A stretch of 64,000 nt of DNA from Marinomonas profundi (lineage in GTDB: Bacteria > Pseudomonadota > Gammaproteobacteria > Pseudomonadales > Marinomonadaceae). The stretch is from assembly GCF_020694005.1 (NCBI RefSeq), contig NZ_CP073013.1, forward strand, positions 3,172,578 through 3,236,577. The letters are read 5' to 3'. Made by a program: the position numbers and the translations under genes. Shown piece after piece: positions 3,141-58,600 of the stretch. The notes beneath the pieces were generated by a model. That model worked only from the letters and a program-made list of their open reading frames with translations. It was not told the DNA's origin and did not search any database. How positions within the stretch are numbered: position 1 is the stretch's first letter; each line of letters begins with the position of its first letter.

Positions 3141-3503
<363 letters not shown>

Positions 3504-3517
3504 AAATTTGAAGATTT

Positions 3518-3593
3518 GCCGCTATAGCTCAGTTGGTAGAGCATCTGACTTGTAATCAGAGGGTCCCGAGTTCGACTCTTGGTGGCGGCACCA
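3518..3593 (+). tRNA. tRNA-Thr (TGT), copy 1
   Basis: 76-nt cloverleaf with acceptor GCCGCTA, anticodon loop CTTGTAA (anticodon TGT) and encoded CCA. The anticodon stem is TCTGA/TCAGA, whereas the three later copies have CCTGA/TCAGG, a compensated pair change. Confidence 0.96.
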
Positions 3594-3656
3594 GATTTGG
3601 TCAAAGTCTTGATCTTTTAAAGATCAAGATCAAAAAAAGATTTTGCTTTTATAAAG

Positions 3657-3732
3657 GCCGCTATAGCTCAGTTGGTAGAGCACCTGACTTGTAATCAGGG
3701 GGTCCCGAGTTCGACTCTTGGTGGCGGCACCA
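3657..3732 (+). tRNA. tRNA-Thr (TGT), copy 2
   Basis: 76-nt cloverleaf, anticodon loop CTTGTAA, encoded CCA. The 63-base spacer before it holds a GATCTTT/AAAGATC inverted repeat (about 3611-3627). Confidence 0.96.
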
Positions 3733-3772
3733 CTTCTTAGGGAGTGAGTGAAGGTAAACTGCGTTATGTAAG

Positions 3773-3848
3773 GCCGCTATAGCTCAGTTGGTAGAGCACC
3801 TGACTTGTAATCAGGGGGTCCCGAGTTCGACTCTTGGTGGCGGCACCA
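3773..3848 (+). tRNA. tRNA-Thr (TGT), copy 3
   Basis: 76-nt cloverleaf identical in sequence to copy 2 as far as I can read; anticodon TGT, encoded CCA. Confidence 0.96.
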
Positions 3849-3891
3849 TTACTTCCTTTGGGTTGTAATGTAAAATTTGATTTAGCGTTTA

Positions 3892-3967
3892 GCCGCTATA
3901 GCTCAGCTGGTAGAGCACCTGACTTGTAATCAGGGGGTCCCGAGTTCGACTCTTGGTGGCGGCACCA
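3892..3967 (+). tRNA. tRNA-Thr (TGT), copy 4
   Basis: 76-nt cloverleaf with anticodon TGT and encoded CCA. It differs from copies 2 and 3 by one D-loop base (AGCTGG instead of AGTTGG). Confidence 0.96.
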
Positions 3968-4009
3968 CTTACTTAATAAAGTAAGATTGGAGAATGTTAA
4001 GCAAGCATT

Positions 4010-4085
4010 GGGTGTGTAGCTCAGTTGGGAGAGCGTCGCCCTTACAAGGCGAATGTCGGGGGTTCGAACCCCTCCACACCCACCA
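4010..4085 (+). tRNA. tRNA-Val (TAC), copy 1
   Basis: 76-nt cloverleaf: acceptor GGGTGTG/CACACCC, D stem GCTC/GAGC, anticodon loop CTTACAA (anticodon TAC), T arm GGGGG-TTCGAAC-CCCTC, encoded CCA. It begins the Val/Asp amplified part of the array. Confidence 0.96.
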
Positions 4086-4136
4086 TCTTACCGATGTAAA
4101 AGGTACGTCTGCTGGGACGAAAAATACACTTGTGTT

Positions 4137-4213
4137 GGAGTGGTAGTTCAGTTGGTTAGAATACCTGCCTGTCACGCAGGGGGTCGCGGGTTCGAGTCCC
4201 GTCCATTCCGCCA
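4137..4213 (+). tRNA. tRNA-Asp (GTC), copy 1
   Basis: 77-nt cloverleaf, acceptor GGAGTGG/CCATTCC, anticodon loop CTGTCAC (anticodon GTC), T-loop TTCGAGT, encoded CCA. Very close to the E. coli tRNA-Asp sequence. Confidence 0.96.
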
Positions 4214-4261
4214 TTTACTTTTGATAGAGTAAATAGGTTAAAGAAATACCATCATTGCGAT

Positions 4262-4337
4262 GGGTGTGTAGCTCAGTTGGGAGAGCGTCGCCCTTACAAG
4301 GCGAATGTCGGGGGTTCGAACCCCTCCACACCCACCA
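4262..4337 (+). tRNA. tRNA-Val (TAC), copy 2
   Basis: Identical to Val copy 1, 252 bases downstream, with the same flanking spacers, so it is part of a tandem duplication. Confidence 0.96.
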
Positions 4338-4387
4338 TCTTACCGATGTAAAAGGTGCGTCTGCTGGGACGAAAAATACACCGTGTT

Positions 4388-4464
4388 GGAGTGGTAGTTC
4401 AGTTGGTTAGAATACCTGCCTGTCACGCAGGGGGTCGCGGGTTCGAGTCCCGTCCATTCCGCCA
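4388..4464 (+). tRNA. tRNA-Asp (GTC), copy 2
   Basis: Identical to Asp copy 1; 251 bases downstream of it. Confidence 0.96.
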
Positions 4465-4512
4465 TTTACTTTTGATAGAGTAAATAGGTTAAAGAAATAC
4501 CATCATTGCGAT

Positions 4513-4588
4513 GGGTGTGTAGCTCAGTTGGGAGAGCGTCGCCCTTACAAGGCGAATGTCGGGGGTTCGAACCCCTCCACACCCACCA
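4513..4588 (+). tRNA. tRNA-Val (TAC), copy 3
   Basis: Identical to Val copies 1 and 2; 251 bases after copy 2. Confidence 0.96.
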
Positions 4589-4639
4589 TCTTACCGATGT
4601 AAAAGGTACGTCTGCTGGGACGAAAAATACACTTGTGTT

Positions 4640-4716
4640 GGAGTGGTAGTTCAGTTGGTTAGAATACCTGCCTGTCACGCAGGGGGTCGCGGGTTCGAGT
4701 CCCGTCCATTCCGCCA
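4640..4716 (+). tRNA. tRNA-Asp (GTC), copy 3
   Basis: Identical to the other Asp copies. Its downstream flank is the spacer that elsewhere follows tRNA-Val, which marks a recombination joint. Confidence 0.96.
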
Positions 4717-4766
4717 TCTTACCGATGTAAAAGGTACGTCTGCTGAGACGAAAAATACACAGTGTT

Positions 4767-4843
4767 GGAGTGGTAGTTCAGTTGGTTAGAATACCTGCCT
4801 GTCACGCAGGGGGTCGCGGGTTCGAGTCCCGTCCATTCCGCCA
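4767..4843 (+). tRNA. tRNA-Asp (GTC), copy 4
   Basis: Identical Asp copy lying only 127 bases after copy 3, with no Val gene between them. Confidence 0.96.
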
Positions 4844-4892
4844 TTTACTTTTGATAGAGTAAATAGGCTAAAGAAATACCCATCATTACGAT

Positions 4893-4965
4893 GGGTGTGT
4901 AGCTCAGTTGGAGAACTTAGTTCTTACAAGGTGCTAGATGCCGAGGGTTAGAAAACATCCTCATT
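4893..4965 (+). pseudogene. Decayed tRNA-Val (TAC)
   Basis: The first 19 bases (GGGTGTGTAGCTCAGTTGG) match the intact tRNA-Val. After that the D stem partner is shifted (GAGAAC), the anticodon stem no longer pairs although TTCTTACAAG is still recognisable, the T arm is AGGGTTAGAAAACATCCT, and the acceptor partner CACACCC and CCA are gone. It occupies the position where a Val gene is expected between Asp copy 4 and Val copy 4. No functional cloverleaf can be drawn. Confidence 0.85.
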
Positions 4966-4987
4966 GTTAAGATGTGAAAGCGTTATT

Positions 4988-5063
4988 GGGTGTGTAGCTC
5001 AGTTGGGAGAGCGTCGCCCTTACAAGGCGAATGTCGGGGGTTCGAACCCCTCCACACCCACCA
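4988..5063 (+). tRNA. tRNA-Val (TAC), copy 4
   Basis: Intact copy identical to Val copies 1-3, immediately after the decayed copy; the spacer on its 5' side is unlike the repeated spacer. Confidence 0.96.
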
Positions 5064-5095
5064 CTGATAGAAAGTGGTTAAAAATCTATGAAAAC

Positions 5096-5172
5096 GGAGT
5101 GGTAGTTCAGTTGGTTAGAATACCTGCCTGTCACGCAGGGGGTCGCGGGTTCGAGTCCCGTCCATTCCGCCA
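5096..5172 (+). tRNA. tRNA-Asp (GTC), copy 5
   Basis: Intact last gene of the array, identical to the other Asp copies; the 32-base spacer before it differs from the repeated Val-Asp spacer. Confidence 0.96.
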
Positions 5173-7048: not shown

Positions 7049-8482
7049 TATATGGACTCCTCTGGGGATGCAACGATAGCATCCCTATTTTTTAATAAAG
7101 AATCATGCGTACTCCACTTGTTTATTAACAATACTTATCAACGGTCATAACAAACTTGCGTTAGCTTTCGTATATTCGGTCTTATTATGGAGAGCTACTC
7201 CAGACCTTAACGGCTTTATTCGCCGTGTAAACCAAACGCCTTATCGGAATTATGGCTTCAAGAGCCGCTGACCTACTCAGGTTTCATTTGGTTTGCTTGC
7301 TAGCTGTTCATTCCGTTCAATCTATATTGCTAACTGCCTAGGTTGGTACTTTCTCTATTTACTGGCTTATTGAACATCATCGTTACTGTGCGACAGGTTG
7401 ACGATATTCAAGCCCACTTTTCAGCATGGCTGTCGCCATTCTGACCAGTTTGTTGGCGACGGCCACTATGGTTTTATTAAACCCTTTCGTGCTGAGTAGT
7501 TGCCTTATCCAACAACTCAAGCCGTCTGTTTTTTCTTTAACATGAATGACCAAAGATCGGGCCCCGTTAATAATGAGCGTACGCAGATACGTATCGCCTC
7601 GCTTGGTAATCCCGCCGATGGTGACCTTACCGCCACTGCCACTGTGCGCGGGTACAAGGCCTATGCTGGCACTGGCATCTCGGCCACGTCTGAAGCACTC
7701 AGCCGAACCGAACTTAGCATACATCATGCTGGCTCCGAGCCAAGCGACACCGGGCAGTTGAACAAGCCGTTGGCAGGCGTCAATCTGTTTCGCTATCGTT
7801 TTAATCTCATCGGTCACTTCTGCCATCAGCATGATCACATGTCTAAGTTGCTCTAACAGTCTAAATATTATCCTGCGTGCAACGACGGTCATTTCATTTT
7901 CAGCATCTTCAAGCGTAATAGGCACTTGCTTAAGGAGCTTACTGATTCCTACCGCAAAGTTAACCCCATATTCACGGCCAAAACCGCGAAGGCGATTGGC
8001 AATTTGGTTTCGTTCTTTCTTATAGCCTTCGCGGAATTTATGTAATGTAGCAATATCTTGCTGCTCTAATGTACGGATCTGAACGCAGTGTAACTGCTGG
8101 CTTCTACTCGCCTCATAAATACTCATGGCATCATTTTTATCATTCTTATTACCCACTCGGTATTTTGCGGCAATATGAGGAGGAATTAGGCCCACTTTAT
8201 GGCCTGATGCCGTGAAGTGTCTAGCCCAATGATGTGCTGAACCACACGCTTCCATATAGATCGCTGCATCAGGGTACTGGGCAATGATGAGACACATCTT
8301 CTTCGCTGTGACTTCTTTATTTAACTTGGCTTTACCAGCTTGGTTGAAGACAGCAACTTGGAAAACTTCTTTCGCTAAATCGATACAAATTGTCGTATTA
8401 TTATTCATGGTATGGCTCCTTTGGTTTGGTCGCCCCCCAATTTACCGAAATTCAGCTGAATTGGGGAGGAGTCCATACCATT
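7049..8482 (-). mobile_element. IS110-family element, IS1111 group
   Basis: About 1.43 kb. A 12-bp subterminal inverted repeat, TATGGACTCCTC at 7051-7062 and GAGGAGTCCATA at 8466-8477, brackets one transposase gene on the minus strand. Short subterminal repeats are the hallmark of the IS1111 group, unlike the IS110 group. A long non-coding segment (7063-7382) lies downstream of the transposase, where IS1111 elements are expected to carry their guide RNA. The outer flanks (GTAGGTCA at 7041-7048, GATTAGCCGAGG from about 8483) rejoin to resemble the dispersed repeat near 27803-27835, so the element split such a repeat. Exact outer bases are uncertain by a few positions. Confidence 0.85.
7383..8408 (-). 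CDS. IS110-family transposase (IS1111 group)
   Basis: 341-aa DEDD recombinase that moves the surrounding element. The N-terminal RuvC-like domain shows D10 (CIDLAKEVF), E53 (YMEACGSAHHWAR, a signature of the IS1111 group) and D90/D93 (NKNDKNDA). A helical middle follows, then the C-terminal Transposase_20 domain with LPGVAWLGA and the Ser-containing GLVPAHSGSGGK (about residue 250), which supplies the nucleophile in this family. Length is normal and the frame is intact, so it may be active. Several overlapping frames on the other strand are shadows. Confidence 0.93.
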   Translation of the reverse strand: MNNNTTICIDLAKEVFQVAVFNQAGKAKLNKEVTAKKMCLIIAQYPDAAIYMEACGSAHHWARHFTASGHKVGLIPPHIAAKYRVGNKNDKNDAMSIYEASRSQQLHCVQIRTLEQQDIATLHKFREGYKKERNQIANRLRGFGREYGVNFAVGISKLLKQVPITLEDAENEMTVVARRIIFRLLEQLRHVIMLMAEVTDEIKTIAKQIDACQRLVQLPGVAWLGASMMYAKFGSAECFRRGRDASASIGLVPAHSGSGGKVTIGGITKRGDTYLRTLIINGARSLVIHVKEKTDGLSCWIRQLLSTKGFNKTIVAVANKLVRMATAMLKSGLEYRQPVAQ

Positions 8483-8589
8483 GGATTAGCCGAGGAACGA
8501 GGCGTGATCTAACGTTTATGAAGCAATCTGTTACACGCCTGATTACGGTCGTACCTCCCTCATCAGGCCTACAAAACCTATCCAACTGT
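8483..8589. repeat. Dispersed palindromic repeat pieces between the two insertion sequences
   Basis: 8483-8510 (GATTAGCCGAGGAACGAGGC onward) is the reverse complement of the repeat around 27803-27830. 8536-8575 (CGCCTGATTACGGTCGTACC...ATCAGGCCTAC) is the reverse complement of the 3' module of the tandem repeats at 55260-55300. These are the flanks into which the two elements inserted. Confidence 0.75.
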
Positions 8590-8625
8590 AGATACCATCT
8601 CTCCTAACCAGCCTCAAGTTTTTAT

Positions 8626-9612
8626 TTAACTAACTTGAGGCTGATATTCTGCTTGATTCTTAACAACACCAAAACATATTTGTGACAACTTTCTCATCGC
8701 TGCACCTAGCGCCTGCATTTTTGTTTTGCCTTGTGCTAGTAATCTCGTTTTTTGAGCTTTTATATCAGGATTATGTTGTCCTGCCGCGACTGCAGCCATA
8801 TACAATTTCGCTCTGATATAACCAGGTCCTTCCTTACTCAAGGATGTTTTTCCTGCCCGTTTGCCAGATTCGTTGTGCTTGGGGATCAGGCCTAAATAAG
8901 AAGCTAATTGTTTCGCGCTCTTAAACCGCTTACACGCCAGTAAGCAAACCATTATTCGGGATGTTACTTCACCAACACCGTTTATACTTTCAAGTAATTG
9001 GCGGTTCTTTTTTAATTGAGGGTGCCTGTCAATATGCTCATCAATTTCATTCTTGAGTTTATCAATTTCAGCCTTTAATACCGCTATCATATCTTTGAGT
9101 GATTGAGCGACTCGAGCTGATGCGTCTGAAAACTCTGCTGCTTCATAACGGTTTTCTTCACGCTGCAAATCTTTTTCTAACGCTTCAAGTCTACGCACCA
9201 TTGCCTTTAACTCTCTTGCTTCTACAGGCTCTGGCTGCCAACTTGAAAGTGAATATTGTTGGTCATGACCATAGCGAGCGAGCATTGTGGCGTCTGATTT
9301 ATCAGTCTTATGAACTAGCCCTAATGAGTTTGCATATTGTTTTGCTTTTCCTGGATTTACATGTAAAAGAGTAAATCCTTGTTCATATAAAAAATACATT
9401 AAAGGTTCGCTATAAATGCCAGTAGGCTCTGTCGTAATAACAATATTCTGAGCTTCTAACCCCGTATTCTTTACTAACCAATTAACTAATTCTTGATAGC
9501 CTTGTGTTGTGTTCTTTAATACCTTAGTTTTTAGCTTATTTTTGACCACATCGCGTAGAAAGCTAACATCTAACTTTTCTTTACCTATATCAATGCCAAT
9601 AAAAGCTTTCAT
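8626..9612 (-). CDS. IS110-family transposase (bridge-RNA-type recombinase), copy 1
   Basis: 328 aa. RuvC-like DEDD domain with D8 (GIDIGKEKLDV), E62 (TTEPTGIYSEP) and D104/D107 (HKTDKSDATMLARYG); a coiled-coil segment at about 130-205 rich in Glu and Lys; and the C-terminal Tnp domain with LLESINGVGEVTSR and the putative catalytic Ser in PKHNESGKRAG (S249). Identical in protein sequence to the copy at 54209-55195. The frame is complete. It should excise and insert the element with the help of the RNA encoded just upstream. Confidence 0.95.
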   Translation of the reverse strand: MKAFIGIDIGKEKLDVSFLRDVVKNKLKTKVLKNTTQGYQELVNWLVKNTGLEAQNIVITTEPTGIYSEPLMYFLYEQGFTLLHVNPGKAKQYANSLGLVHKTDKSDATMLARYGHDQQYSLSSWQPEPVEARELKAMVRRLEALEKDLQREENRYEAAEFSDASARVAQSLKDMIAVLKAEIDKLKNEIDEHIDRHPQLKKNRQLLESINGVGEVTSRIMVCLLACKRFKSAKQLASYLGLIPKHNESGKRAGKTSLSKEGPGYIRAKLYMAAVAAGQHNPDIKAQKTRLLAQGKTKMQALGAAMRKLSQICFGVVKNQAEYQPQVS

Positions 9613-9620
9613 CTCTATCT

Positions 9621-9784
9621 ACTCCCCTTGTACATGCAGCATCACCCTTACTTGGGGTGCTAGGATACCATTCAGTTTAATGGAGGTTAGGAAATCAGGG
9701 CTCAATCTACAAAATAGCATCTTTGTGCTCAGGTCGCGCACGAGCTCACCGATTTCCCGATGTGATAAGTGTTAGCTAAACACT
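9621..9784 (-). ncRNA. Putative bridge RNA of the IS110 element, copy 1
   Basis: Same sequence as 54037-54200 on the opposite strand. The target-binding loop corresponds to 9700-9745 and the donor-binding loop to 9627-9671. The reasoning is given under copy 2. Boundaries of the transcript are inferred. Confidence 0.7.
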
Positions 9785-9801
9785 CATCAAGAAGAGATAC
9801 A

Positions 9802-9912
9802 AGGTCGCGCCTTCAGGCCGACAAAAACCTGATCACACCAAACCAAACCCCTTGACGCGCTAAAGCACGATAAGATCAACGGAATTCGTTTAGCGACAAC
9901 CTCTTTCGCAAG
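9802..9912. repeat. Dispersed repeat, left flank of IS110 copy 1
   Basis: 9815-9912 aligns with about 27695-27785 at high identity, including the shared core CTTGACGCGCTAAAGCACGA and CGGAATTCGTTTA. The element inserted at the GCGCGACCT end of this repeat (9802-9810 on the minus strand). No reading frame is supported between here and 9971. Confidence 0.75.
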
Positions 9913-51069: not shown

Positions 51070-52578
51070 ATGTGTGGTATCGTTGGTGTCGTAGGCACGT
51101 CTGTGGTTAACCAAGCTATTTTTGATGCGTTAACCCTTCTTCAGCATCGTGGGCAAGATGCTGCGGGCATGGTTACTAGCCATAATGGACGATTATGCTT
51201 GCGCAAAGACAATGGTCCGGTGAGTGAGGTTTTTCGCACTCGCCATATGAAAAAACTGCACGGCAATATAGGTATTGGCCACGTCCGCTATCCGACGGCG
51301 GGCACATCTAGCTCAGCGGAAGCACAACCTTTCTATGTTAACTCTCCCTATGGTATTTCGCTTGCGCACAATGGTAATTTAACCAATACGGCTAAGCTTA
51401 AACAGGAAGTGTTTGAGTCGGATTTACGCCATATCAACACGACGTCAGATTCTGAAGTCTTGGTAAACGTATTGGCTCATGAGCTGCATGAAGAAGGCAA
51501 GTTGGTACCAACCCCTGAAGATATTTTCAATGCCCTAGAACGCGTTTATAAGCGTATTGAAGGCGGCTACGCGGTGGTCACCTTGATCACCGGGTATGGC
51601 ATTTTAGCTTTTCGCGACCCTGATGGCATTCGCCCATTGATCTACGGTTCTCGACAAACGGATACGGGTGTTGAGCACATGGTGGCGTCTGAAAGTGTGG
51701 CGCTTGATGCGGCTGGCTTTAAGGTTGAGCGTGATATTCAACCTGGTGAGGCAATCTTTTTTGACTTAAACCATAACGTTCACGTGCGCCAGTGCACACC
51801 GAAAAAAGTGGCTCGTCCATGTTTGTTTGAATACGTGTATTTTGCGCGTCCAGATACCGTAATCGACAGTATTTCTGTCTACAAAGCTCGTATTAATATG
51901 GGTGAGCGTCTGGCGGCTAAAATTCAGCGTGAATGGCAAGATCATGATATTGATGTGGTGATTCCTATTCCCGATACCAGCCGTACCGCCGCCTTGCAAA
52001 TTGCTCAGGCGTTGAATATTCCGTTCCGTGAGGGATTGGTAAAAAACCGTTACATTGGCCGTACTTTTATCATGCCAGGGCAAGCGGTGCGTAAGAAATC
52101 GGTGCGTCAGAAATTGAACCCAGTGCCTTTTGAGTTTAAAGACAAAACGGTGTTACTAGTGGATGATTCCATTGTTCGCGGTACAACGAGTAAAGAAATC
52201 ATTGAGATGGCAAGAGAAGCGGGCGCGAAGAAGGTATACATTGCGTCTGCGGCGCCTGAAGTGCGTTATCCGAATGTGTATGGTATTGATATGCCGGCGG
52301 CACACGAGCTTATTGCGCACAATCGTAGTGTCGATGAGATTTGCGAGTTGATTGGCGCGGATAAATTGATTTTTCAAGATCTACAAGATTTAATTGACGC
52401 TTGTATCGATGAAAAACATTCGGATGTTCGAGAGTTTGATACGTCTGTGTTTGATGCAAAATACATTACAGGTAACATTGATGCGGCTTATTTAGCCAAT
52501 ATCGAAGGCGCGCGTAATGATTTAAATAAAGCGGCGCTTGAAGACATGGAAAGCAACGATATGATGCATCCAATGTGA
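51070..52578 (+). CDS. purF: Amidophosphoribosyltransferase
   Basis: First committed step of purine synthesis (PRPP plus glutamine to phosphoribosylamine). 502 aa. The N-terminal nucleophile Cys follows Met directly (MCGIVG), the glutaminase domain has HVRYPTAG and [10 protein letters not shown], and the PRTase domain contains the PRPP loop [14 protein letters not shown]. The tail is acidic. A strong terminator follows, closing the cluster. Confidence 0.97.
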
Positions 52579-52708: not shown

Positions 52709-53884
52709 ATGGCTGATTATAAAGACGCAACGAATGCGATTCGTGCTGGTATTCGTCAAACACAAGAGCAAGAAAACAGCGAAGCCATTTTTATGACCTC
52801 GAGTTTTGCCTATAGCAGTGCAGAAGAAGCCGCAGGCAAATTTTCTGGTGAAGAAGAGGGTAATGTCTATTCCCGTTTTACCAATCCAACGGTAGCGCTG
52901 TTTGAGAAACGTTTAGCGACCCTAGAAAAAGGCGAAGCGGCGATTGCGACCAGTTCTGGTATGGCCGCCTTGATGACCTTGGCTTATAGCTTATTGAGCG
53001 CCGGTGATCGTGTTGTTTGCTCACGCAATATCTTTGGTTCGACGGTTAAGTTTTTTAACGCCTACACCACAAAATTTGGTGTGGAAGTGCTGTATGTGGA
53101 TGCCACCGATTACGCCGCATGGGAAGACGCGATTAACGACAATACGCGTTTTTGTTATTTCGAGACGCCATCCAATCCGCTTTATGAAGTCGTTGATGTT
53201 GCAAGAGTGGCGGCCTTGGCGCATGCCAAAGGTGCCTTGTTGTGTGTCGATACGGTCTTGGCCACGCCGGCGTTGCAGAACCCTTTAACGCAAGGGGCTG
53301 ATATTGTGATGCAGTCTGCTACCAAGTTTATTGACGGGCAAGGTCGCTGTTTAGGCGGCGCGTTAATTGCCAGTCAAGAGATCGTCGATGTGTTTACCGC
53401 CTTTATGCGCAGTGCGGGCCCATGCATGAGCCCATTCAACGCTTGGGTGTTGCTAAACGGTCTTGAGACCCTGTCTTTGCGGATGACAGCGCATTCCGCT
53501 AATGCGATGAAATTAGCTGAGTATTTAGAAGCGCACCCTAAAGTGCAGGCCGTAAACTACGGCGGCTTGCCAAGTCACAAATATCATGAATTGGCTAAGC
53601 AACAGCAAAAAGACTTTGGCGGTTTATTATCGTTTGAGGTGGAGGGTGGTCGTAAAGCGGCTTGGGCAGTCATTAACGCCACGAAATTGATGTCGATTAC
53701 AGGTAACCTAGGAGATACCAAAACCTTAGTGACGCACCCAGCGACCACGACGCATGGCCGTTTAACCGATGAAGAAAAAGCCAAAGCGGGTATTACCGAA
53801 GGCTTGATTCGCGTGTCTGTTGGCTTAGAAGACATCGATGATATTATTGCCGATGTTGAAGCTGCGCTGGCGCAATTATCCTAA
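52709..53884 (+). CDS. metZ: O-succinylhomoserine sulfhydrylase
   Basis: 391 aa from the ATG at 52709 (GGAG upstream). PLP enzyme making homocysteine directly from O-succinylhomoserine and sulfide. Signatures: YSRFTNPTVALFEKRLATLE, ATSSGMAAL, CYFETPSNPL, and the PLP Lys in MQSATKFIDGQGR. The IDGQGR sequence and the purF neighbourhood are typical of MetZ rather than MetB or MetC. I see no clear terminator before the repeats. Confidence 0.93.
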   Translation: MADYKDATNAIRAGIRQTQEQENSEAIFMTSSFAYSSAEEAAGKFSGEEEGNVYSRFTNPTVALFEKRLATLEKGEAAIATSSGMAALMTLAYSLLSAGDRVVCSRNIFGSTVKFFNAYTTKFGVEVLYVDATDYAAWEDAINDNTRFCYFETPSNPLYEVVDVARVAALAHAKGALLCVDTVLATPALQNPLTQGADIVMQSATKFIDGQGRCLGGALIASQEIVDVFTAFMRSAGPCMSPFNAWVLLNGLETLSLRMTAHSANAMKLAEYLEAHPKVQAVNYGGLPSHKYHELAKQQQKDFGGLLSFEVEGGRKAAWAVINATKLMSITGNLGDTKTLVTHPATTTHGRLTDEEKAKAGITEGLIRVSVGLEDIDDIIADVEAALAQLS

Positions 53885-53913
53885 TCTGTGATTGATATTT
53901 TATGACGTTATTT

Positions 53914-54019
53914 AGCCTGCAATTGATTGATCTATATTGTTTTTTTGTAGGTCGTGGCTTTAGCCCGACAAGGCGTAATTTGTCGTGGTGAGTTTTTTGT
54001 CGGCATAAATGCGCGACCT
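53914..54019. repeat. First unit of the tandem repeats, left part (interrupted by IS110 copy 2)
   Basis: Begins AGCCTGCAATTGATTGATCT. The part from about 53947 forms a long imperfect hairpin: GTAGGTCGTGGCTTTAGCCC pairs with the stretch ending GCATAAATGCGCGACCT. The element cut this unit after GCGCGACCT (54011-54019); the right part continues at 55232. Confidence 0.8.
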
Positions 54020-54036
54020 TGTATCTCTTCTTGATG

Positions 54037-54200
54037 AGTGTTTAGCTAACACTTATCACATCGGGAAATCGGTGAGCTCGTGCGCGACCTGAGCACAAAG
54101 ATGCTATTTTGTAGATTGAGCCCTGATTTCCTAACCTCCATTAAACTGAATGGTATCCTAGCACCCCAAGTAAGGGTGATGCTGCATGTACAAGGGGAGT
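54037..54200 (+). ncRNA. Putative bridge RNA of the IS110 element, copy 2
   Basis: Lies between the left end and the recombinase start, as in IS621-type elements. A 5' hairpin AGTGTT/AACACT is at 54037-54053. Loop 1, closed by GCTC (54076-54079) and GAGC (54118-54121), has TGCGCGACCT (54081-54090), equal to the left target, a hairpin AGCA/TGCT (54092-54105), and TGTAG (54110-54114), the complement of CTACA on the right of the target. Loop 2 has ATGGTATC (54150-54157), equal to the element's right end, a hairpin AGCA...TGCT (54160-54183), and TACAAG (54189-54194), complementary to CTTGTA at its left end. This is the order target loop then donor loop. Transcript limits are inferred. Confidence 0.75.
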
Positions 54201-54208
54201 AGATAGAG

Positions 54209-55195
54209 ATGAAAGCTTTTATTGGCATTGATATAGGTAAAGAAAAGTTAGATGTTAGCTTTCTACGCGATGTGGTCAAAAATAAGCTAAAAACTAAGGT
54301 ATTAAAGAACACAACACAAGGCTATCAAGAATTAGTTAATTGGTTAGTAAAGAATACGGGGTTAGAAGCTCAGAATATTGTTATTACGACAGAGCCTACT
54401 GGCATTTATAGCGAACCTTTAATGTATTTTTTATATGAACAAGGATTTACTCTTTTACATGTAAATCCAGGAAAAGCAAAACAATATGCAAACTCATTAG
54501 GGCTAGTTCATAAGACTGATAAATCAGACGCCACAATGCTCGCTCGCTATGGTCATGACCAACAATATTCACTTTCAAGTTGGCAGCCAGAGCCTGTAGA
54601 AGCAAGAGAGTTAAAGGCAATGGTGCGTAGACTTGAAGCGTTAGAAAAAGATTTGCAGCGTGAAGAAAACCGTTATGAAGCAGCAGAGTTTTCAGACGCA
54701 TCAGCTCGAGTCGCTCAATCACTCAAAGATATGATAGCGGTATTAAAGGCTGAAATTGATAAACTCAAGAATGAAATTGATGAGCATATTGACAGGCACC
54801 CTCAATTAAAAAAGAACCGCCAATTACTTGAAAGTATAAACGGTGTTGGTGAAGTAACATCCCGAATAATGGTTTGCTTACTGGCGTGTAAGCGGTTTAA
54901 GAGCGCGAAACAATTAGCTTCTTATTTAGGCCTGATCCCCAAGCACAACGAATCTGGCAAACGGGCAGGAAAAACATCCTTGAGTAAGGAAGGACCTGGT
55001 TATATCAGAGCGAAATTGTATATGGCTGCAGTCGCGGCAGGACAACATAATCCTGATATAAAAGCTCAAAAAACGAGATTACTAGCACAAGGCAAAACAA
55101 AAATGCAGGCGCTAGGTGCAGCGATGAGAAAGTTGTCACAAATATGTTTTGGTGTTGTTAAGAATCAAGCAGAATATCAGCCTCAAGTTAGTTAA
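54209..55195 (+). CDS. IS110-family transposase (bridge-RNA-type recombinase), copy 2
   Basis: 328 aa, identical in protein sequence to 8626-9612 on the other strand; motifs are as described there (D8, E62, D104/D107, S249). The start ATG has GGGGAG upstream, and that ribosome-binding site directly follows the last guide of the putative bridge RNA, so RNA and mRNA may share one transcript. A GCCTCAAGTT/AACTTGAGGC hairpin (about 55180-55210) overlaps the stop codon and may end transcription. Confidence 0.95.
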   Translation: MKAFIGIDIGKEKLDVSFLRDVVKNKLKTKVLKNTTQGYQELVNWLVKNTGLEAQNIVITTEPTGIYSEPLMYFLYEQGFTLLHVNPGKAKQYANSLGLVHKTDKSDATMLARYGHDQQYSLSSWQPEPVEARELKAMVRRLEALEKDLQREENRYEAAEFSDASARVAQSLKDMIAVLKAEIDKLKNEIDEHIDRHPQLKKNRQLLESINGVGEVTSRIMVCLLACKRFKSAKQLASYLGLIPKHNESGKRAGKTSLSKEGPGYIRAKLYMAAVAAGQHNPDIKAQKTRLLAQGKTKMQALGAAMRKLSQICFGVVKNQAEYQPQVS

Positions 55196-55231
55196 ATAAA
55201 AACTTGAGGCTGGTTAGGAGAGATGGTATCT

Positions 55232-55310
55232 ACATGGTTCTTTGTCGTACTTTAGCTTTGTAGGCCTGATGAGGGGAGGTACGACCGTAATCAGGCGTAT
55301 GACGTTATTT
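55232..55310. repeat. First unit of the tandem repeats, right part
   Basis: Continues ACATGGTTC... and contains the second palindrome: GGCCTGAT (55263-55270) with ATCAGGC (55290-55296) around GAGGTACGACC. It is 4-6 bases shorter than the equivalent part of unit 2. Confidence 0.8.
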
Positions 55311-55501
55311 AGCCTGCAATTGATTGATCTATATTGTTTTTTTTGTAGGTCGTGGCTTTAGCCCGACAAGGCGTAATTTGTCGTGGTGAGTTTTTTGTCG
55401 GCATAAATGCGTGACCTACATGGTTTTATGTAGGTCGTACTTTAGTTTTGTAGGCCTGATGAGGGGAGGTACGACCGTAATCAGGCGTATGACTTTATTT
55501 A
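55311..55501. repeat. Second unit of the tandem repeats (191 bp)
   Basis: Uninterrupted unit: first palindrome with outer arms GTAGGTCG and the GACCTAC end, then the GGCCTGAT/ATCAGGC palindrome. The target site here reads GCGTGACCTACA (55409-55420), one base different from the occupied sites. No reading frame is supported. Confidence 0.85.
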
Positions 55502-55654
55502 GCCTGCAATTGATTGATCTATATTGTTTTTTTTGTAGGTCGTGGCTTTAGCCCGACAAGGCGTAATTTGTCGTGGTGAGTTTTTTGTCGGCATAAATGC
55601 GCGACCTACATGGTTTTATGTAGGTCGTGGCTTTAGCGCGTCAAGGCCGACCTA
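55502..55654. repeat. Third, partial unit of the tandem repeats
   Basis: Starts AGCCTGCAATTGATTGATCT and runs through an intact GCGCGACCTACA (55599-55610). It ends in another palindrome form, GTAGGTCGTGGCTTTAGCGC...GACCTAC, that overlaps the TAG stop of the RND gene on the other strand. Confidence 0.8.
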
Positions 55655-58600
55655 CAGGTGATTGGGTTTGGTGTGATCAGCTTTTTCAGTTTCGTTTTGA
55701 TGGTGCTCATCTTCATGCTGGAAGGTTGCCGTTTGTAACGCTTCTAGCTGTTGTTTTTCCTTGCGACGCGCGCCCAATACCAATAAACAAGGCGTTAAAA
55801 TAAGGGTGAGCGGTGTGGCAAAGGTTAAGCCGCCAGCAATTGCTGTGGAAAGCTGTGTCCACCATTGAGCGGAAGGCGCGCCAATGCTGAACGATTGATG
55901 CACTAGATCAATGTTTAGCTGAAACACCATAGGCACCAAGCCGAGAATGGTGGTAATAGTAGTCAATATAACGGGTCTTAAACGCTGGACGCCAGTACGA
56001 ATAGCGGCTTCGCGCACCATTAAGCCTTGTTTTCGTAAGCCATTAAAAGTGTCGATTAAGACGATGTTGTTATTGACGACAATGCCCGCCAACGCAATAA
56101 CGCCAACCCCACTCATGACCACGCCAAAGGGTTGTCCTTTTGCCATGAGTCCAATCAGTACGCCCATAGTCGAAAAGATCACCGCACTTAAAATCAGCAA
56201 GCACTGGAAAAAATTATTGAATTGGGTGACAAGGATGATCGCCATAATAAAGAAAGCAACACCAAACGCCTTGAGCAGGAAGCTCATCGATTTTTGCTGC
56301 TCTTCGGTGTTGCCACGAAATTCGTAGCGGACGGATTTGTCTATGCCAGCCGCATCCAGTTTGGTTTTAATCGCCTTGATCACTTCATCGACAACAAGAC
56401 CATCTTTTACGTCAGCCTCAATGGCGATGGTTTTCTTGCCGTCGGTTCGATTGATCACGCCTTGTTTGGGGGCTGCATAGCGCTGAATAAAATTGCTCGC
56501 TGGGATGCTGCCTTGATTGGTGGGAATTTGCAGTTGGTCAAGTTGCTCCAAGCGGCGTTGATTCACGGGATAACGCAAGACGATGTCTATTTTGTCATCC
56601 GCCCCTGCTGGCAAAAAGTCGCTCAAGGTAATGCCTGTGGTGACCAGCTTGACCACATTGCCCAGACTATTGACGTCGACGCCGTAACGACTGGCCTCTG
56701 CACGATTGATATCAAGGCGCCATTCAATACCGGGCAAGGACCTATCATCGCTGACGGTGACGATTTCTTCTCTTGTTAATAGTTGCTTGCTGATCTCATC
56801 GGCGGCGAGATTGAGTGCTTCACTATAATTGGAGCTTAATTGCAGTTGAATATCGGCACCCGATTGTGGGCCGCCTTGCTCTTTTTCAGCACTGACTTCG
56901 ATGCCGGGAATCTGCTTAGTTCTTTCCCTAATACGATCCAAAATAACACTGGCGGATTCACGTTTATACCAATCGATAAACTCCATGCTGATGGCGCCTA
57001 TGCTGTCTGGCGCGGCATTGTTACCCGGTGTAGAGTAAGAGGTTGCGACAACGCTTTTTAATTCAGGCGTGCCAAGGATTTGCAGTTCAACTTGTCTGAC
57101 CAGCGCGTCTTTTTCATCAAGCGATAAATCGCCTCTGGCGCGTATGTCCAAATTGGCCGACTCCGGCTCAATATTAGGAAAGAACTCCACCCCTTTGCCA
57201 AAATGGCCATAGCTAACAAAAACGCTGATCAGCAAGGCAATGGTAAACAGCAACACCCACACAGGGTATTCCACTAACCGAGTCAGCATTCTGCCGTAGG
57301 CACCCGTTAGCCCGGTCAGCTCTCTTAGGTCCCCCGTTTCGGTCACCCGTAGCGCGTGCATAGTTTTTTCCGTGTAGGCGCCTTTTTTGCCAATAATCGA
57401 ACCTATGGTTGGTATGATGATTAAGGCCATAACGAGAGAAGAAGCGAGTGTCGCAATGATGGTGATTGGCATAAAACGCATAAATTCACCAACAATATCA
57501 GGCCAGAATAACAAGGGCATGAAAACCGCCAAAGTGGTGGCTGTGGAAGCGGTAATCGGCCACGCCATGCGTTTTGCGGCTTCGCTGTAGGCTTGTCTTT
57601 TAGAGGCGCCTTCGGCGAGTTTACGATCCGCGTATTCAGTGACCACAATCGCGCCGTCCACCAGCATGCCGACACTGAGAATTAAGGCGAAGAGTACCAC
57701 CATGTTGATGGTGTAGCCTTGCAAATCAAGAATGAGAATGCCCGCTAAAAACGCCCCCGGAATGGCCAGGCCAACCAGTAGCGCACTGCGGATACCAAGC
57801 GCCCAAACGATGACAATCATCACCAGCAAGGTGGCGGCTAAAACATTGTTAAACAGGTCATTAAGGGAGGTTTCTATGTCCGTGGATTTATCGCCCGTTA
57901 GATTGTATTCAACGCCGCTGGGCCATTGTTGGCTCTCGCTTTCGACAACCGTTTTGACGGCCGCAATGGTGTTAATAATATTGGCGCCTACACGTTTCGA
58001 TACTGCCAACGTAATGCTGCGCTTGCCTTCTACACGAGCATAACTGGTGGCGTCTTCAAAGGTTAATTCACCCGTGGCAATGTCGCCCAATAAGACGACT
58101 TGATCGCCATCGGCTTTGATGGGCAAGTTCATAATGTCTTCTTTGGTTTTCAGTAAGCCGGGGACTTTTAGTGAGAAGCGACCAGCGCCTGTGTCTAGGT
58201 TGCCAGCGGCGACCAAGCGGTTATTGCCAGAGACAAAATTCGCCACATCGGCCAGAGAAAGGTTGTAAGACTCAAGTTGCTCTGGGCGGATAATAATCTG
58301 TGCTTGTTGTTCTCTGTCACCACTGATGTTGGCTTCTAAAACGCCGTCAACGGCTTCAATCGCATCTTGCAGATTTTTTGCGGTACGGCTTAAGGTGGCA
58401 AAATCTACGTTACCTGATAAATTGACCCGTAGTACAGGGAAAGTAGATAGGTTTATTTCCGTGACTGTCGGTTCGTCGGCGTCGTCTGGCAATTCACTTT
58501 TGGCTCTGTCTACCTTGTCTTTGGTGTCGCTGATGGCTTGATCAATGTCCACCCCAGACAAAAACTCCAGCATAATAGAAGCATGACCTTCTGATGCGGT

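What the first reader, a model, noticed from the sequence alone, without database searches (positions are those of the whole stretch)
54037..54200. A readable bridge RNA with target and donor guides in an IS110-type element
Loop 1 holds TGCGCGACCT, identical to the left target (54010-54019), and TGTAG, complementary to CTACA across the core and right target. Loop 2 holds ATGGTATC, identical to the element's right end (55223-55230), and TACAAG, complementary to CTTGTA at its left end (54018-54023). In both loops the two guides flank a hairpin closed by AGCA/TGCT. This is the layout described for IS621-type bridge RNAs (target loop, then donor loop, upstream of the recombinase). Seen: the matches and hairpins. 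Inference: transcription and function.
Basis: partly seen in the sequence, partly recalled or inferred. Interest (0 to 1): 0.8.

Follow-up and report, generated by a model that had tools for sequence, protein, structure and literature searches.

The report
IS621-type bridge RNA in Marinomonas
A small jumping gene of a marine bacterium carries an RNA whose two loops spell out where it lands and where its own ends are; it is a clear new example of the bridge-RNA system published in 2024, not a new kind of system.

Summary
Window 54018-55231 is an IS110-group insertion sequence, by inference of Marinomonas. Its recombinase has IS621 as best solved-structure hit, and its left end encodes a bridge RNA. 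Three identical copies occur in the genome, all at GCGCGAC|CT|ACA in REP-like repeats. Over 65 distinct loops of related elements, loop 1 matches the element's own left target; 0 of 20,000 re-pairings do as well. The circle junction would create a promoter (TTG, 17 nt, TATCTT), TTG being at that spacing in 26 of 31 right ends. One correction: the right donor guide is AT-(GT flipped out)-ACAAG pairing with CTTGTAT, not contiguous TACAAG. The features tested match the bridge RNAs of Durrant et al. and Hiraizumi et al. 2024. New member of a known kind; transcription and activity untested.

The parts
54018..55231 (+). IS110-group insertion sequence, core CT to core CT
   Evidence: three identical copies in the genome; ends shared with relatives
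54209..55195 (+). recombinase, 328 aa; D8, E62, D104, D107 and S249 line up with the IS621 DEDD and catalytic serine
   Evidence: Pfam PF01548 and PF02371; IS621 8wt6 E 5.9e-53; NF033542; residues; IS621 residues named in PMC11208158 (passages)
54026..54201 (+). bridge RNA, extent of the covariance-model match
   Evidence: 134.5 bits; structure covariation
54032..54058 (+). 5' stem-loop of the bridge RNA
   Evidence: fold; helices 1-2
54063..54132 (+). target-binding loop with its stems
   Evidence: fold; helices 3-6
54081..54090 (+). left target guide TGCGCGACCT (the part tested against relatives is 54082-54090)
54110..54114 (+). right target guide TGTAG
54144..54200 (+). donor-binding loop (approximate limits; outer stem not recovered)
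54150..54157 (+). left donor guide ATGGTATC
54186..54194 (+). right donor guide AT-GT-ACAAG, GT probably flipped out, pairing with CTTGTAT
   Evidence: IS621 structure text
54011..54019 (+). left target GCGCGAC plus core CT
54018..54024 (+). core plus right donor CTTGTAT
55223..55231 (+). left donor ATGGTAT plus core CT
55230..55234 (+). core plus right target CTACA
55204..55231 (+). -35 TTGAGG, 17-nt spacer and first five bases of the -10 (TATCT); completed to TATCTT only in the excised circle
53946..54019 (+). left part of the REP-like repeat unit into which the element is inserted; the same 80-nt stretch occurs uninterrupted at 55338-55417 and 55528-55607
55599..55610 (+). unoccupied perfect target site GCGCGACCTACA
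8590..9803 (-). second identical copy of the element; its bridge RNA is at 9620-9795

Best explanation
This is an IS110-group (IS621-like) insertion sequence with a bridge RNA in its left end. Excision as a circle joins right and left ends and completes a sigma-70-like promoter across the CT core, from which an RNA of roughly 175-190 nt would be made. Loop 1 pairs with the genomic target (left guide GCGCGACCT with the bottom strand, right guide TGTAG with the top strand), and loop 2 pairs with the element's own joined ends (ATGGTATC, and AT..ACAAG with a two-base flip-out). The DEDD-serine recombinase exchanges strands at CT and so inserts the circle into REP-like repeats ending GCGCGACCTACA. 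Shown here: sequence matches, conserved structure, guide-target tracking, multiple identical copies at matching sites, conserved promoter spacing. Inferred from IS621: excision as a circle, transcription, RNA binding, recombination.
For: Recombinase family and IS621 as best solved-structure hit. Three 100% identical copies, each at GCGCGAC|CT...CT|ACA in otherwise different flanks. A covariance model made without this element finds 3 of 3 copies in the genome. Left target in own loop 1: mean 8.03 of 9 against 5.99 for other elements' targets, 0 of 20,000 re-pairings. Right target positions 3-5 match the own guide in 26, 22, 23 of 50 against 14.6, 12.4, 12.8 expected. Donor guides: second base of left donor and left donor guide agree (T or C) in 54 of 56; right donor CTTGTATC goes with AT two bases before the (A/G)CAAG pairing block in 51 of 56, CTTGTGTC with AC in 7 of 8; the one CTTATATC (L050) goes with AT..ATAAG (counted from the table). 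Structure: 91.8% of cells paired, covariation score 0.771 against 0.208 shuffled, slid structures at most 0.125. TTG exactly 17 nt before TATCT in 26 of 31 unique right ends. Close Marinomonas copies: 13 of 13 left flanks GC[G/A]CGAC, 15 of 17 right flanks CTACA and 2 CTACC.
Against: No transcript or activity data. The right target guide matches only CTACA of the site here and only CTAC in many relatives. 18 of 65 loops do not rank their own target first, and L058, L076, L108 and L113 match at 6 of 9 or fewer. Right target position 6 shows no excess (14 of 50 against 13.4). The re-pairing tests ignore shared ancestry. In many distant relatives the left donor guide reads ACGGTAGCC against donor ACGGTATCT (14 of 56). 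The measure 'pairs with a change on both sides' is weakly separated from shuffles (35 against 31.2, 6 of 500 shuffles reach it). 9 of the 13 close left flanks are GCACGAC, one mismatch from guide GCGCGAC, compatible with a G-T wobble.
Confidence: 0.96

Rival explanations
1. The element inserts by protein recognition of the REP or by DNA homology, and the left-end RNA structure serves another role such as regulating the recombinase mRNA.
For: The RNA lies directly upstream of the gene, so leader regulation is possible; small RNAs are reported to regulate the ISPpu9 transposase (PMC8450116, title and start of abstract in the listing).
Against: Loop 1 differs between relatives and follows each element's own target, while the right guide is complementary, not identical, to the top strand. 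Of 24 transition mismatches between left guide and target, 16 are wobble-compatible for RNA on the bottom strand and 8 are not; 15 further mismatches are transversions (suggestive only).
Confidence: 0.03
2. The element and its RNA are no longer active and the guides are relics.
For: No expression data.
Against: Three copies are 100% identical over 1215 bases, the reading frame is open and the catalytic residues are present, which points to recent movement.
Confidence: 0.05

Closest known systems
IS621 and its bridge RNA (E. coli; PMC11208160, PMC11208158)
   Same: recombinase family and catalytic residues, RNA in the left end upstream of the gene, 5' stem-loop then target loop then donor loop, CT core, four guides, discontiguous right donor guide, promoter formed at the circle junction (here by sequence only), REP targets
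   Different: different target guide and REP type; recombinase well diverged from IS621 (alignment); donor-loop outer stem not recovered here
ISCro4 (PDB 9t56; hit listing and alignment only)
   Same: IS110-family transposase, second-best solved relative
   Different: its bridge RNA was not compared here
IS1111-group seekRNA elements (PMC11187229, passages only)
   Same: DEDD transposase with a guide RNA in a long non-coding end
   Different: RNA downstream of the gene and subterminal inverted repeats; the neighbour at 7051-8477 looks like this type, the element studied has its RNA upstream

Membership tests
IS110 group (IS621-like) with bridge RNA | DEDD RuvC-like domain PF01548 plus PF02371 with catalytic serine | tested here: met
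IS110 group (IS621-like) with bridge RNA | long non-coding left end upstream of the gene, short right end | tested here: met
   left end 191 nt, right end 36 nt with core
IS110 group (IS621-like) with bridge RNA | structured RNA: 5' stem-loop, target loop, donor loop | tested here: met
   the donor loop's inner hairpin is supported, its outer stem was not recovered in the consensus, and the three-pair helix that the model places inside the left donor guide has next to no covariation
IS110 group (IS621-like) with bridge RNA | target guides match the insertion site and covary with it | tested here: met
IS110 group (IS621-like) with bridge RNA | donor guides match the element's joined ends and covary | tested here: met
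   few donor variants exist, so the test is weaker than for targets
IS110 group (IS621-like) with bridge RNA | promoter reconstituted at the circle junction | tested here: met
   sequence and conserved spacing only
IS110 group (IS621-like) with bridge RNA | RNA transcribed, bound by recombinase, required for recombination | not testable with these tools
   needs RNA-seq and in vitro assay
IS1111 group | guide RNA downstream of the gene, in a long right end | tested here: not met
   the RNA is upstream and the right end is 36 nt
IS1111 group | subterminal inverted repeats of about 11-13 bp | not tested
   a search for short inverted repeats was run only on the neighbouring element

The most novel reading that the evidence does not exclude
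The guide is tuned to one REP subfamily through its 5'-most base and a tolerated G-T wobble: it uses GCGCGAC and GCACGAC REPs but not the far commoner [C/T]CGCGACCTACA REPs, although several of those have a better right-target match. If so, one genome gives a natural specificity test of a bridge RNA.
Probability: 0.35. Interest if true: 0.4.

Novelty: new member of a known kind. Interest (0 to 1): 0.27.

Why it matters
It adds a marine genus to a well-described RNA-guided recombination system and gives a clean natural case: identical copies at several REP sites, unoccupied perfect sites and near-match sites all in one genome. It adds a candidate recombinase and RNA pair with a GCGCGAC|CT|ACA target, but no new principle.

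Tried and rejected
Rfam at gathering thresholds gave only tRNAs in the window, so no curated family recognised the RNA; I built a model instead. The generic promoter scan found nothing on the + strand in 53850-55700, as expected for a promoter that forms only in the circle. For an orthologous empty site, the stretch after the upstream gene was read in 11 (L162-L172) of the 40 congeners with a match: other intergenic sequence, no obvious matching REP, so none was obtained; uninterrupted repeat units in the same window serve instead. The wobble asymmetry of left-guide mismatches (16 against 8) is only suggestive. Literature: 'Marinomonas' with 'IS110' gave 2 papers, neither about it by title; 'Marinomonas' does not occur in the held main text of PMC11208160. 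Whether this element is named in ISfinder was not testable. The covariance search of the window also gave a third, weak match (51475-51503, 11.7 bits, E 0.02), taken as chance.

Rows dropped: of 95 recombinase matches 83 had a left end recognised by a fixed motif, 78 a right end, 68 both. One search used 78 with a flank of at least 12 nt, 65 after removing identical loops; near-identical loops remain (e.g. L038, L039, L040, L071). One search used 50 with a right flank and a recognised right guide; L094, L107, L108 and L114 had none recognised, and a few were probably mislocated by the simple pattern (e.g. L057). Right donor guides were placed as the best match to the donor, which favours agreement in the first six bases. 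One search used only right ends of at least 30 nt. Alignment A2 used 30 of the 37 sequences listed and A3 used 18, chosen by length and to avoid near-duplicates; A3 left out the window element and its Marinomonas kin L038 on purpose. One search covered 41 of the loci then held. One search read the context of 30 of the 44 sites. One search covers close copies only (own genome, L038-L040, L071/L118, and all matches of G301 and G311); more distant elements of the genus have other guides (L012, L019) or were not read.

Full report
What is there. Window 54018-55231 is an insertion sequence bounded by CT cores. Its recombinase (54209-55195, 328 aa) matches Pfam PF01548 and PF02371 and, among solved structures, IS621 transposase best (E 5.9e-53) and ISCro4 next. 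D8, E62, D104, D107 and S249 line up with the IS621 DEDD and serine named in PMC11208158 (passages).

Checking the observation. Three copies of the element, 100% identical over 1215 bases, lie in the genome, two of them in this window (54018-55231 plus strand, 8590-9803 minus strand). All three left flanks end GCGCGAC before the CT core and all three right flanks begin ACA after it, while the surrounding sequence differs. The site in the window lies at the end of a REP-like inverted repeat; the flanks of the other two copies look alike. The genome has 4 further, uninterrupted GCGCGACCTACA sites and 40 with one mismatch; the same pattern read backwards, the control, gives 22 at up to one mismatch against 44.

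RNA structure. The strand 54030-54208 folds better than 197 of 200 shuffles. A covariance model from 18 relatives, without this element and its close kin, finds both window copies at 134.5 bits and all 3 copies in the genome. In 43 aligned matches (42 distinct), 91.8% of cells pair, and the covariation score is 0.771 against 0.208 for shuffles and at most 0.125 for slid structures; the number of pairs with a change on both sides is less telling (35 against 31.2; 6 of 500 shuffles reach it) (this alignment is fitted to the model). A MAFFT alignment of 30 not fitted to the model, with its own RNAalifold structure, gives 87.6% of cells paired and 0.729 against 0.239 shuffled and at most 0.171 slid. 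The donor loop's outer stem was not recovered.

Guide and target tracking. From 95 recombinase matches, 65 distinct loops with readable flanks were tested. The seven left-target bases plus core match the own loop at 8.03 of 9 on average, against 5.99 for other elements' targets; none of 20,000 re-pairings reached this (maximum 6.46). 47 of 65 rank their own target first, ties counted as first; L058, L076, L108 and L113 fit poorly. L058 has two bridge-RNA copies 232 nt apart, so its left flank is its own sequence. For the right target, positions 3, 4 and 5 match in 26, 22 and 23 of 50, against 14.6, 12.4 and 12.8 expected; positions 1 and 2 are nearly constant and position 6 shows no excess (14 against 13.4). 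Relatedness among elements is not corrected for.

Donor guides (tables). The second base of left donor and left donor guide agrees (T or C) in 54 of 56, but 14 of 56 have guide ACGGTAGCC for donor ACGGTATCT. For the right donor, CTTGTATC goes with AT two bases before the pairing block in 51 of 56, and CTTGTGTC with AC in 7 of 8; the one CTTATATC (L050) has AT-GT-ATAAG.

Promoter. In the excised circle the right end would supply TTGAGG and, 17 nt on, TATCT, and the left end the last T (TATCTT). TTG stands at exactly this spacing in 26 of 31 unique right ends and at any other spacing from 10 to 23 in at most 9. IS621 also reconstitutes a promoter at its junction (PMC11208160 section 5).

Close Marinomonas copies were examined: 13 left flanks, 4 GCGCGAC and 9 GCACGAC, some possibly the same site in two assemblies, each with guide GCGCGACCT in the same read; and 17 right flanks, 15 CTACA and 2 CTACC (in draft genomes the left and right ends lie on different contigs, so they are not paired). 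GCACGAC differs from the guide by one base that allows a G-T wobble. No unrelated site was seen.

A small extra. In the own genome 30 of the 40 one-mismatch sites are [C/T]CGCGACCTACA (counted from the list). None carries the element, although 8 of the 26 one-mismatch sites whose context was read are followed by AAAA and so fit the right guide TTTTGTAG better than the used sites. With 7 perfect sites, 3 of them used, the chance that 3 random insertions among these 37 sites all fall on perfect ones is about 0.005 (hand calculation). This suggests that the 5'-most target base matters, but three insertions are few and the repeat types differ elsewhere too.

Against what is known. The features tested match IS621-type bridge-RNA elements (PMC11208160: abstract, sections 5, 6, 7, 12 and passages read; PMC11208158: section 8 and passages; PMC11187229: passages). 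Insertion of IS elements into REPs is also known (PMC1525189, abstract). The verdict is a new member of a known kind; function is inferred, not shown.

Noticed in passing
window 7051-8477, gene 7383-8408 (-): A different IS110-family element beside the second copy: 341-aa transposase (NF033542, no solved-structure hit at E 0.001) with perfect 12-nt inverted repeats TATGGACTCCTC/GAGGAGTCCATA near its ends and 320 nt between gene and repeat on the downstream side, so IS1111-like; single copy in the genome. One window thus holds both groups.
   Followed up: partly
window 8530-8586: REP-like repeat of about 57 nt with 49 further matches in the genome, two of them in the 190-bp units beside the first copy.
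   Followed up: partly
window 55244-55637: Tandem 190-bp repeat units, each with a REP-like inverted repeat, next to the insertion; one unit has GCGTGACCTACA and one a perfect target.
   Followed up: partly
window 3427-5169: Array of 14 tRNA genes, several in near-identical tandem units of 119 and 251 bp.
   Followed up: no
L058 2087-2491: Halomonas beimenensis relative with two bridge-RNA left ends 232 nt apart, the upstream one followed by the start of the recombinase gene.
   Followed up: no
L011 1310-3938: Two copies of a relative only 1466 bp apart in the same orientation, with the same left guide and left targets that differ by one base.
   Followed up: no
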